A model generated the notes under the pieces. The model saw only the letters and a list, made by a program, of their open reading frames with translations. It did no database searches and had not been told where the DNA came from. Below are positions 30,140 to 32,918 of a DNA stretch of 32,918 bases, piece after piece. Every line of letters starts with the position of its first letter. The stretch's first letter is position 1. This stretch comes from a virus. A program made the position numbers and the translations under genes. The stretch covers positions 1-32,918 of the IMG/VR virus record IMGVR_UViG_3300046542_000612; one strand, 5' to 3'.

Positions 30140-30343
30140 ATGTCGAGCAACGTCTTGATATTTGAAGACCTGCAGCGCATCACGGGCTACCAGCGCCGCT
30201 CCGACGTCGAGAGAACGCTGATTGACCAAGGCGTTCGCTTGTTCCGTGGCCGCACCGGGCCTTGGACAACGCTGGACCTCATCAACCAAGCAGCAGGTAT
30301 GAAGCCCGCAGCAGCAGAGCGATACGAAGCCGACATCCTATGA
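30140..30343 (+). CDS. DUF4224 protein upstream of integrase
   Basis: The 67-residue protein (SSNVLIFEDLQRITGYQRRSDVERTLIDQG) matches DUF4224, small winged-helix-like proteins paired with prophage integrases. ATG 30140 has AGAGGA upstream. Its stop overlaps the integrase start, so the two are co-expressed; a role in excision or integrase control is inferred. Confidence 0.8.
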   Translation: MSSNVLIFEDLQRITGYQRRSDVERTLIDQGVRLFRGRTGPWTTLDLINQAAGMKPAAAERYEADIL

Positions 30344-31488
30344 GGAAAGCACGGAAGCGGGCGCATAATCCGCACATCCCCGCTCACATTGACCAGGCCG
30401 CTCTCCCAGCGGCCGTTTACTTTGACCAAAGAAATGAGGGAGTTTGGTACACACTCCACCGTGACGAGGCAGGCAAGCAGCGCCGGCGCAACATTGCGCC
30501 GGCGGACGTTTCGCTGGCTGAGTTGCATCAGATCATGGATGAAGCGTCGAACGTCGATCGGGGGACGCTCCGCTATGTGTGCGAGCAGTTCCATGACAGT
30601 GATCGTTACAAGAAGCTCAGCTCAAAAACCCATAGCGACTACTGCTACTCCCGTGACGTCCTGCTGACCTTACCTACCAAGCTGGGCAAGCCACTGGGTG
30701 ATTTGGCGGTGAAGAAATTCACCTCTGCCCTGGTGCAGCGAATCGTTGATCGATTGGCAGACGAAGGCACTCCCTCTAAAGCCGCGCACGCCCTTCGCTA
30801 CTTGCGCCGGGTGCTGCAGTGGGGCCGCAACCGCGGATTTCTGGAAGTGAACCCGGCGCTTGGCGTTGAGGCCCCCGTCGAACGCAAGCAACGCCGCCTA
30901 CCAAACCATCAGGTCATGGACACGCTTATCGATCGGGCAATTGCTCGGGGCCTGCTGATACGCGGCGAGAAAGGCGGCTGCCCCGAATACCTCGGTTACG
31001 TCATGGAGCTGGCCTATCTCTGCAGGCTGCGCGGAATCGAAGTCGTTACCCTGACCGACGCAAACGAGCTGGAAAGCGGGATCCTCACCAACCGTCGGAA
31101 GGGAAGTCGAGACAACATCGTTCGCTGGACGCCACGCCTGCGCAAAGCTTGGGACCACGCGAAGGCCTATCGGGCCAAGGTCTGGGCCAAACGCAAGACC
31201 GCTATACCGATCGCACCGTCACGTCGGAACATCATCGTGGCCAGCCATGGTGGACCGCTCCGCAAGTCCAGCCTGGATACGGCATGGCAAAGATTCATTA
31301 CTTTGGCTCTCGTCGACGAGGTGATCACACCGGAGCAAAGGTTCGCCCTTCACGACCTGAAACGACGTGGCATCACCGACACGGCCGGCACTCGGGCTGA
31401 TAAGCAAGAGGCCAGCGGCCACCGCGATCCGAAGATGATGGACGTCTACGACCACAGTATCCCCACCGTCTCCCCTTCTGCTGACTGA
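30340..31488 (+). CDS. int: Tyrosine integrase
   Basis: The 382-residue recombinase has an N-terminal arm-binding region and a catalytic domain with CRLRGIE (Arg near 229), HDLKRRG (His near 337), SGHRDPKMM (His near 360) and the nucleophile in VYDHS (Tyr near 369). It inserts the phage into the 3' end of tRNA-Thr, found 112 nt downstream. ATG 30340 overlaps the DUF4224 stop (ATGA). Confidence 0.93.
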   Translation: MRKARKRAHNPHIPAHIDQAALPAAVYFDQRNEGVWYTLHRDEAGKQRRRNIAPADVSLAELHQIMDEASNVDRGTLRYVCEQFHDSDRYKKLSSKTHSDYCYSRDVLLTLPTKLGKPLGDLAVKKFTSALVQRIVDRLADEGTPSKAAHALRYLRRVLQWGRNRGFLEVNPALGVEAPVERKQRRLPNHQVMDTLIDRAIARGLLIRGEKGGCPEYLGYVMELAYLCRLRGIEVVTLTDANELESGILTNRRKGSRDNIVRWTPRLRKAWDHAKAYRAKVWAKRKTAIPIAPSRRNIIVASHGGPLRKSSLDTAWQRFITLALVDEVITPEQRFALHDLKRRGITDTAGTRADKQEASGHRDPKMMDVYDHSIPTVSPSAD

Positions 31489-31570: not shown

Positions 31571-31600
31571 GTGCTTGATTTTTATGCTTGAAGCACCTAC
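31567..31600 (+). other. Inverted repeat abutting the attachment core
   Basis: GTGCTT (31571-31576) and AAGCAC (31591-31596), extended by GTA/TAC across one mismatch, border the core at 31601. It may be a recombination-protein site. Confidence 0.35.
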
Positions 31601-31645
31601 CTTGTAATCAGTAGGTCCCGGGTTCGACTCCTGGTGCCGGCACCA
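31601..31645 (+). other. Attachment site: 3' fragment of tRNA-Thr(TGT)
   Basis: CTTGTAATCAGTAGGTCCCG onward to GCCGGCACCA reproduces the anticodon loop (TGT), variable loop, T arm (GGTTCGA) and acceptor 3' strand with CCA of tRNA-Thr. The 5' half is absent: upstream sequence cannot form the anticodon stem or D arm. This is the prophage-side junction left by integration. The complete tRNA should lie at the other end, outside the window. Confidence 0.85.
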
Positions 31646-31654
31646 TACAAAACG

Positions 31655-31810: not shown

Positions 31811-31838
31811 TTGACGGGCTCTTACACCTACCTATAAT
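31811..31838 (+). promoter_or_regulatory. Strong promoter of the RNA-abi locus
   Basis: TTGACG (31811-31816), a 16-bp spacer and TATAAT (31833-31838) form a near-consensus sigma-70 promoter. Transcription should begin near 31845. Confidence 0.8.
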
Positions 31839-31844
31839 GCACCC

Positions 31845-31906
31845 CAACACACCCGCCAAGCCTAGGTTGACCCTGTCAGCAAGCTCAAATCGTGCGGGTT
31901 TTTTTT
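31845..31906 (+). ncRNA. Candidate AbiF-associated structured RNA
   Basis: A roughly 62-nt transcript would run from the promoter start to a T8 run at 31899-31906. ACCCGC (31851-31856) pairs with GCGGGT (31894-31899) to close the RNA, and GTTGAC-CCT-GTCAGC makes an inner 6-bp hairpin. The T8 after GCGGG forms a terminator just before the abi gene. A structured RNA upstream of Abi_2 genes (the AbiF RNA motif) has been described; this fits its place and size, but I could not compare the consensus. Confidence 0.55.
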
Positions 31907-31922
31907 GCCTGGAGAAAACTAC

Positions 31923-32918
31923 ATGAGGCCCTTCGACAAGCCGGCCCTCAGCGTAGAACAGCAATTGGAACTGCTAAAGCAACGAGGCCTGCAAGTCGCA
32001 AACGACGAGCGCGCCATGCGTTTCCTGGAAGTGGTCACGCTGTTTCGCCTGAGTCCCTACATGCGCCCTTTTCAGGAAACAAACCCTGAACACACCTTCA
32101 AACCTGGTAGCACTCTGAAAGCAGTCGTCGACATCTACCGTTTCGATGGTTCGTTGCGACGCATTACCATGGATGCTATCGAACGTGTCGAAGTCGCCAT
32201 ACGAGCGACTATTAGCAATCACATGTGCCCGAAGTACGGGCCTGACTGGATAGCTGACGCGTCAATCTTCTCCTCGTCATACTCACATTCGGATTTATTG
32301 CGGCCCCTGCGAGATCAACTGAGCAAGGAACGCAACAAACTTGGACGTGAGATTGATCGTATAAAAAAGAGCAGCCGAGCAGATCAGATCCAGCAGCAGC
32401 AGCAGCGAATTGAAAATCGCACGCGTGATAACTATTTTCGATTCTACGGATCAACATATTCCAATCCCGAGTTGCCTCCCGCTTGGGCTGTTCTGGAAGA
32501 GCTTAGCCTTGGGACGGTATCCACCCTGTTCAATGCCATAGGCAAAAGCGTCGACAAGAAAGCGATCGCGAGCAGATTCAATCTCCCCTTCGAAGTACTG
32601 GCCTCCTGGCTCCACACTTTGACCTTCATTCGAAACTGCTGCGCCCACCACTCACGACTATGGAACAGAGAGCTCTCGATTCGACCATCCTTACCTAAAG
32701 AATGGGTCATCCAAAATGCACCTGGCGATCGGCCTCAGCCCAAGCAGCGGCTATTCATAGTACTAACGATGCTAGCGTATCTAACCGATTTGATCAGTCC
32801 AGACAGCCATTGGAAATTTCACTTGGCCGAAATGATGGACGAAAGAGAGCCGGGTTATTTGAAACTTATGGGGTTTCCAGATGACTGGAAACGGCAACCG
32901 CAATGGTGTTTGGGGTAG
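31923..32918 (+). CDS. AbiD/AbiF-type abortive infection protein (Abi_2)
   Basis: The 331-residue protein carries the Abi_2 order: FDKPALSVEQQLELLKQRGL at the start, YRFDGSLRRITMDAIERVEVAIR (72-94), a variable charged helix with a glutamine run (QIQQQQQ, 155-161), PAWAVLEELSLGTVSTLF (186-203), and the HEPN core R237-N238-x3-H242-H-x-R245-x-W247-N248. This family aborts phage growth. ATG 31923 has GGAG nine bases upstream; a TTG at 31905 is unlikely. It lies outside the prophage, beyond the attachment site, directly behind a candidate RNA with its own terminator. Confidence 0.88.
   Translation: MRPFDKPALSVEQQLELLKQRGLQVANDERAMRFLEVVTLFRLSPYMRPFQETNPEHTFKPGSTLKAVVDIYRFDGSLRRITMDAIERVEVAIRATISNHMCPKYGPDWIADASIFSSSYSHSDLLRPLRDQLSKERNKLGREIDRIKKSSRADQIQQQQQRIENRTRDNYFRFYGSTYSNPELPPAWAVLEELSLGTVSTLFNAIGKSVDKKAIASRFNLPFEVLASWLHTLTFIRNCCAHHSRLWNRELSIRPSLPKEWVIQNAPGDRPQPKQRLFIVLTMLAYLTDLISPDSHWKFHLAEMMDEREPGYLKLMGFPDDWKRQPQWCLG

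What the first reader, a model, noticed from the sequence alone, without database searches (positions are those of the whole stretch)
31811..32918. Promoter, terminated small RNA and Abi_2 gene form a probable RNA-controlled abortive infection unit
A near-consensus promoter reads into about 62 nt that can close by ACCCGC/GCGGGT, holds a second hairpin and ends in GCGGG plus eight Ts. Only 17 nt further on lies an AbiD/AbiF gene with its HEPN core intact. A terminator placed between promoter and gene means the RNA is the main product and the protein needs read-through. This is the layout of RNA-antitoxin or RNA-guided toxin pairs. An AbiF RNA motif upstream of Abi_2 genes is known, but its mechanism is little described. 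The RNA here may neutralise or activate the HEPN protein.
Basis: partly seen in the sequence, partly recalled or inferred. Interest (0 to 1): 0.75.

Follow-up and report, generated by a model that had tools for sequence, protein, structure and literature searches.

The report
AbiF toxin gene with RNA antitoxin
Next to a prophage in a Pseudomonas genome lies a small RNA gene followed directly by an RNA-cutting toxin gene; it is a clear member of the recently described AbiF RNA-antitoxin systems from which the CRISPR enzyme Cas13 is thought to have evolved, so it is real but mostly already explained.

Summary
TTGACG-16-TATAAT (31811-31838) reads into an RNA of about 62 nt ending in GCGGG and T8, 16 nt before an Abi_2/AbiD-F gene (31923-32918) with an intact HEPN motif (R237-N-C-C-A-H242). 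The RNA matches Rfam abiF (RF03085): 34.2 bits, E 6e-5. It falls just under the cut-off of 37, probably because its apical hairpin is longer than the model's. A 23-haplotype alignment shows covariation in the two inner helices. In close Pseudomonas relatives promoter, RNA, T-run and gene are kept together. The protein matches PDB 8VZ6 (PbAbiF bound to its RNA; E 5e-47), whose catalytic pair aligns with R237/H242.

Published work on AbiF of C. difficile and PbAbiF gives the mechanism: the RNA binds and neutralises a HEPN RNase toxin, and a terminator between RNA and gene limits toxin synthesis. Differences: a single RNA motif whose closing stem is itself the terminator. One correction: the unit lies just outside the prophage, beyond its tRNA-Thr attachment site.

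New lead: among 43 strong RNA loci in 299 Pseudomonas genomes, 12 have no toxin gene beside them and 6 a broken one, while the RNA fold mostly stays intact.

The parts
31811..31838 (+). sigma-70-type promoter TTGACG-N16-TATAAT of the RNA/gene unit
   Evidence: same or similar hexamers in most close relatives
31845..31906 (+). predicted abiF-type antitoxin RNA (about 62 nt)
   Evidence: RF03085 match 31852-31899, 34.2 bits; own model R1 match 31851-31904, 76.2 bits, by construction because the window is in the training set; covariation. Start is inferred from the promoter
31851..31857 (+). 5' strand of closing helix P1 (ACCCGC, plus C31857 that pairs with G31892)
   Evidence: Rfam consensus pairing, fold; invariant in 23 haplotypes, so no covariation within this clade
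31859..31861 (+). 5' strand of P2 (AGC), pairs with 31883-31885
   Evidence: A-U/U-A compensatory swap, 13 versus 10 haplotypes
31866..31880 (+). apical hairpin P3 (GTTGAC / GTCAGC), longer than the Rfam consensus loop
   Evidence: five of seven columns with changes on both sides across haplotypes
31886..31891 (+). single-stranded linker CAAATC, likely toxin-inhibiting bulge
   Evidence: CAAAT conserved in nearly all members; a bulge of AbiFr inhibits PbAbiF (PMC12737573); position-by-position correspondence is inferred
31894..31906 (+). 3' strand of P1 plus T8: the closing stem of the antitoxin RNA serves as intrinsic terminator
   Evidence: T-run of 4-9 directly after P1 in all members found
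31911..31914 (+). ribosome-binding site GGAG, 8 nt before ATG
   Evidence: sequence
31923..32918 (+). AbiF-type HEPN RNase toxin, Abi_2 family, 331 aa, catalytic R237/H242
31592..31646 (+). 3' part of a tRNA-Thr(TGT) gene, read as the right attachment site of the prophage; homology to phage-free relatives starts here
30262..31488 (+). prophage integrase-like gene next to the attachment site (not part of the AbiF unit)
   Evidence: PF22022 3.2e-5, 24.5 bits, under the curated cut-off of 27

Best explanation
A single-gene AbiF toxin with an RNA antitoxin (like a type III toxin-antitoxin pair). One promoter makes mainly a short RNA that folds into the abiF structure and stops transcription with its own closing stem plus T8. 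Occasional read-through makes the mRNA of a HEPN ribonuclease. The abundant RNA binds the toxin dimer and blocks its RNase activity, so the cell grows normally. When the balance is disturbed, for example by phage take-over of transcription, free toxin cleaves RNA and arrests the cell. Shown here: the parts, their conservation and the covariation. Shown by others in homologues: toxicity, neutralisation in cis and trans, direct binding, RNase inhibition and attenuation by the terminator. Inferred for this locus: all functional steps, and any anti-phage effect.
For: Rfam abiF match at the exact place and a unique genome match in five relatives, all at this locus. Abi_2/AbiD protein whose R237/H242 align with R210/H215 of PbAbiF (8VZ6, residue numbers counted from the alignment); those residues are needed for activity (PMC12373285). 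Covariation score 0.280 versus 0.101 in shuffles, none of 500 reaching it. All 23 full-length genes of at least 45% identity in 299 Pseudomonas genomes carry the RNA immediately upstream. C. difficile RCd22: the same order of promoter, RNA, terminator and gene; deletion raises toxin mRNA 17-fold; neutralises in cis and trans; binds the protein.
Against: No transcript, toxicity or phage data for this locus. The Rfam score is under the gathering cut-off. Folding energy is not better than shuffles. P1, the terminator stem, does not vary in this clade, so covariation does not test it here. Protein identity to the C. difficile phage homologues is only about 24%, although the match to PbAbiF is strong.
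Confidence: 0.87

Rival explanations
1. The RNA is only a leader/attenuator (riboswitch-like) that sets transcription of the gene; it does not act on the protein.
For: Terminator directly between promoter and gene; in C. difficile termination alone strongly lowers a reporter.
Against: Conserved sequence in the single-stranded linker and inner helices is not needed for a terminator. The homologous RNA works in trans and binds the protein. The RNA is kept at loci where the gene is gone.
Confidence: 0.07
2. The RNA activates or guides the HEPN protein, as a crRNA guides Cas13.
For: AbiF is held to be the ancestor of Cas13 (PMC12373285, PMC12737573).
Against: No variable guide segment: haplotypes differ mainly in the P3 hairpin, with pairing kept. 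Homologous RNAs inhibit the nuclease.
Confidence: 0.03
3. A worn-out or coincidental arrangement: the gene is a passenger in a tRNA-Thr hot spot and the hairpin an ordinary terminator.
For: The locus sits at a tRNA-Thr integration site and several relatives carry damaged genes; energy z-score is weak.
Against: ORF intact with catalytic motif; Rfam match; RNA nearly identical across many species while the upstream flank varies.
Confidence: 0.03

Closest known systems
AbiF-Cd / RCd22 of Clostridioides difficile prophage phi027 (PMC12373285)
   Same: Promoter, short RNA with abiF motif, intrinsic terminator, Abi_2 HEPN gene in this order; catalytic Arg/His pair of the HEPN motif
   Different: RCd22 has two abiF motifs and a separate terminator hairpin; here there is one motif whose closing stem is the terminator. 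RCd22 sits in a phage lysis module; this unit lies in a tRNA-Thr flank beside a prophage
PbAbiF with its ncRNA AbiFr (PDB 8VZ6)
   Same: Protein homologous over nearly full length (phmmer 4.6e-47), catalytic residues aligned; one RNA motif, compatible with one RNA per monomer
   Different: This protein is 331 aa against 300, with extra residues in the middle; the RNA of the clade has an enlarged apical hairpin relative to the Rfam consensus (the RNA in 8VZ6 was not compared)
Rfam RF03085 abiF RNA
   Same: Core CCCGCCAAGCCU ... GCUCAAAUCG-GCGGGU and the P1/P2 pairing
   Different: Apical loop of 19 instead of 9 nt and a bulged U; scores 34.2 against a cut-off of 37
Type III toxin-antitoxin systems (ToxIN)
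   Same: RNA antitoxin and terminator ahead of an RNase toxin gene (general knowledge)
   Different: ToxI is a tandem-repeat pseudoknot RNA and ToxN is not a HEPN protein (general knowledge); no tandem repeat here

Membership tests
AbiF/AbiD (Abi_2) toxin | Abi_2 domain over curated cut-off | tested here: met
   159.9 bits against 25.6; PADLOC AbiD 2.9e-64
AbiF/AbiD (Abi_2) toxin | HEPN Rx4H motif aligned with the catalytic residues of a solved AbiF | tested here: met
   R237/H242 align with R210/H215 of 8VZ6
abiF RNA (RF03085) | match of the Rfam covariance model at gathering score | tested here: inconclusive
   34.2 bits against 37, E 6.3e-5; near relatives L049 (42.9) and L034 (37.1) pass
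abiF RNA (RF03085) | P1 and P2 helices with covariation | tested here: inconclusive
   P2 covaries (A-U/U-A); P1 is formed but invariant in the clade, with one A-U to G-C replacement in the copy without adjacent gene, L115
abiF RNA (RF03085) | position directly upstream of an Abi_2 gene | tested here: met
   met for the window; also for 31 of 43 strong RNA loci in 299 Pseudomonas genomes
RNA-neutralised (type III-like) toxin-antitoxin | terminator between RNA and toxin gene | tested here: met
   P1 followed by T8; T-run in all members; termination itself not measured
RNA-neutralised (type III-like) toxin-antitoxin | toxin alone inhibits growth; RNA rescues in trans by binding the protein | not testable with these tools
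   shown for the C. difficile homologue only
Abortive infection system | protection against phage | not testable with these tools
   not shown even for the C. difficile homologue

The most novel reading that the evidence does not exclude
Solitary abiF RNAs: in Pseudomonas the RNA gene is often kept, folded, after the toxin gene has been deleted or broken. Such orphan RNAs could serve as stand-alone antitoxins that make a cell immune to AbiF carried by incoming mobile elements, or be re-used as leaders of neighbouring restriction-modification genes.
Probability: 0.3. Interest if true: 0.6.

Novelty: new member of a known kind. Interest (0 to 1): 0.36.

Why it matters
It places a compact one-motif form of the AbiF RNA-antitoxin system, the presumed ancestor of Cas13, in Pseudomonas genomes, where genetics and phages are easy to work with. 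Because the antitoxin fold is also the terminator, one structure may control both how much toxin is made and whether it is active. The retained RNAs without toxin give a natural experiment on why cells keep an antitoxin.

Tried and rejected
Default Rfam scan of the whole window: no match above the curated scores; only the permissive search of the region showed abiF. Folding energy as proof of structure: not distinguishable from shuffles. The idea that asymmetric decay (gene broken, RNA intact) by itself proves an antitoxin role: rejected, because the gene is about sixteen times longer than the RNA, so neutral decay would hit it first too. Unit as phage cargo: rejected for this window, because homology with phage-free relatives starts inside the tRNA-Thr attachment site. 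Anti-terminator fold: extending the folded stretch to 32000, 78 nt into the coding sequence, drops predicted P1 pairing to about 0.5, but this is a single prediction and was not pursued. A structure prediction was not run because a close solved homologue exists.

Full report
What is in the sequence. At 31811-31838 lies TTGACG-16 nt-TATAAT, 11 of 12 consensus positions. The transcript predicted from it, about 31845-31906, folds into three nested helices: P1 ACCCGC/GCGGGU, P2 AGC/GCU and P3 GUUGAC/GUCAGC, with a single-stranded linker CAAAUC between P2 and P1. P1 is followed at once by T8. Sixteen bases later an ATG starts a 331-codon gene that ends with the window. Folding energy alone does not exceed shuffles (z -0.57), so the case rests on comparison.

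What it is. The default Rfam scan is silent, but a permissive scan gives RF03085, abiF RNA, at 31852-31899: 34.2 bits, gathering score 37, E 6.3e-5. The alignment shows the conserved core intact and 19 nt in place of 9 in the apical loop, plus one bulged U; that is the likely reason for the sub-threshold score. Relatives L049 and L034 with the same core pass the cut-off. With the Rfam model, each of five related Pseudomonas genomes has one match, and in all five it is the one upstream of this gene. The protein is Abi_2 (1.1e-46), AbiD in PADLOC, and its only solved relative found by sequence is 8VZ6 (4.6e-47), which PMC12737573 names as PbAbiF with its ncRNA. Counting along the printed alignment, R237 and H242 fall on R210 and H215 of that chain, the pair whose change inactivates PbAbiF (PMC12373285).

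Comparative anatomy. Homologues were fetched from genomes and viral contigs and from 299 Pseudomonas genomes. In the near clade most RNAs are identical while the sequence around and upstream of the promoter varies. Twenty-three distinct haplotypes, including a clade of 45-49% protein identity, were aligned (A2). P2 shows an A-U to U-A exchange (13 and 10 haplotypes) and P3 has five pairs with changes on both sides; the covariation score is 0.280 against 0.101 in shuffles and 0.02-0.06 in slid controls. P1 is formed throughout but hardly varies, so it gets no covariation support within this set. A T-run of 4-9 follows P1 directly in all members found. So in this lineage the closing stem of the antitoxin fold is also the terminator stem. 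In C. difficile RCd22 there are two motifs and a separate terminator hairpin.

Mechanism. For the C. difficile homologue it was shown that the protein is toxic in C. difficile and E. coli, that deleting the RNA raises toxin mRNA 17-fold, that the RNA neutralises in cis and in trans, and that it binds the protein. For PbAbiF the RNA inhibits single-strand RNase activity through a bulge. All parts needed for this are present here, so I assign the same mechanism by homology. Not shown for this locus: expression, toxicity, neutralisation, phage protection. A guide or activator role has no support.

Where it sits. The record is an IMG/VR virus record with P2-like phage genes (terminase, scaffold peptidase, tail proteins) and an integrase-like gene at 30262-31488. 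At 31592-31646 lies the 3' part of a tRNA-Thr(TGT) gene; ARAGORN finds no whole tRNA in the window. In 13 of the 20 nearest genome loci (L002-L021) a whole tRNA-Thr(TGT) lies upstream of the AbiF unit, 210-410 bp before the start codon in all but one of them, and the homology with the window begins inside the tRNA. Hence 31592-31646 is best read as the prophage's right attachment site and the AbiF unit as flanking DNA of the host or of a neighbouring island, swept in because the provirus was cut at gene ends. In L007/L008 a second tRNA-Thr 3' end with the phage-end sequence lies downstream of the gene, so the flank is itself an integration hot spot.

RNAs without toxin. A model built from A2 gives 43 matches of 35 bits or more in 299 Pseudomonas genomes, with the next at 31 bits and below, mostly short terminator-sized matches. 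Of the 43, 25 precede an intact Abi_2 gene, 6 a broken one and 12 none (compare). Several of the 12 keep a short 5' remnant of the gene. Three stand directly before hsdM of a type I restriction-modification operon; in an intact relative the order is RNA, abiF, hsdM, probably hsdS (L135), so these look like deletions of abiF. In 11 of the orphans the fold is kept: 178 pairs against 168.6 +/- 2.8 expected if the same substitutions fell at random (p about 3e-4), the most diverged one (L115) with paired changes in P1 and P3; one (L117) has decayed. This suggests but does not prove selection after toxin loss: some substitutions may predate the loss, the nearest intact sequence is only a proxy for the ancestor, and neutral decay would also break the longer gene first.

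Caveats. The R1 survey is partly circular because R1 was trained on RNAs found beside AbiF genes; the Rfam results are independent of that. Genomes were drawn mainly from one genus; in 294 genomes of the order the model found nine with a match, so the form is sparse outside it. The counts of intact and broken genes rest on single-sequence protein matches.

Noticed in passing
L106-L117 (for example G251:C37:95480-95533, G235:C157:28638-28692): abiF RNAs with mostly intact fold and no toxin gene beside them, some followed by a short remnant of the gene; the G235 copy has compensatory changes in P1 and P3.
   Followed up: partly
L111, L113, L116; intact order in L135: abiF RNA directly upstream of a type I restriction-modification operon (hsdM), apparently after deletion of abiF; the intact order is RNA-abiF-hsdM and probably hsdS.
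   Followed up: partly
window 31592-31646: Partial tRNA-Thr(TGT), right attachment site of the prophage; the viral record runs past it into flanking DNA up to a stop codon.
   Followed up: yes
L007 and L008, 5293-5487: Second tRNA-Thr 3' end preceded by the same sequence that follows the integrase in the window, downstream of abiF: signs of repeated integration at this site.
   Followed up: partly
L031 2595-4227: Two AbiF genes in tandem in a Bacteroidia contig, the second with its own abiF RNA (59.8 bits).
   Followed up: no
L128/L133 (G517:C15:203113-204532): Three abiF-type RNAs clustered within 1.4 kb, one of them followed by an HsdS-like gene.
   Followed up: no
L076, L077, L080, L083: A distinct Abi_2 subfamily (YPKPWKSYQEQL start) without a recognisable abiF RNA, closely following other genes.
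   Followed up: no
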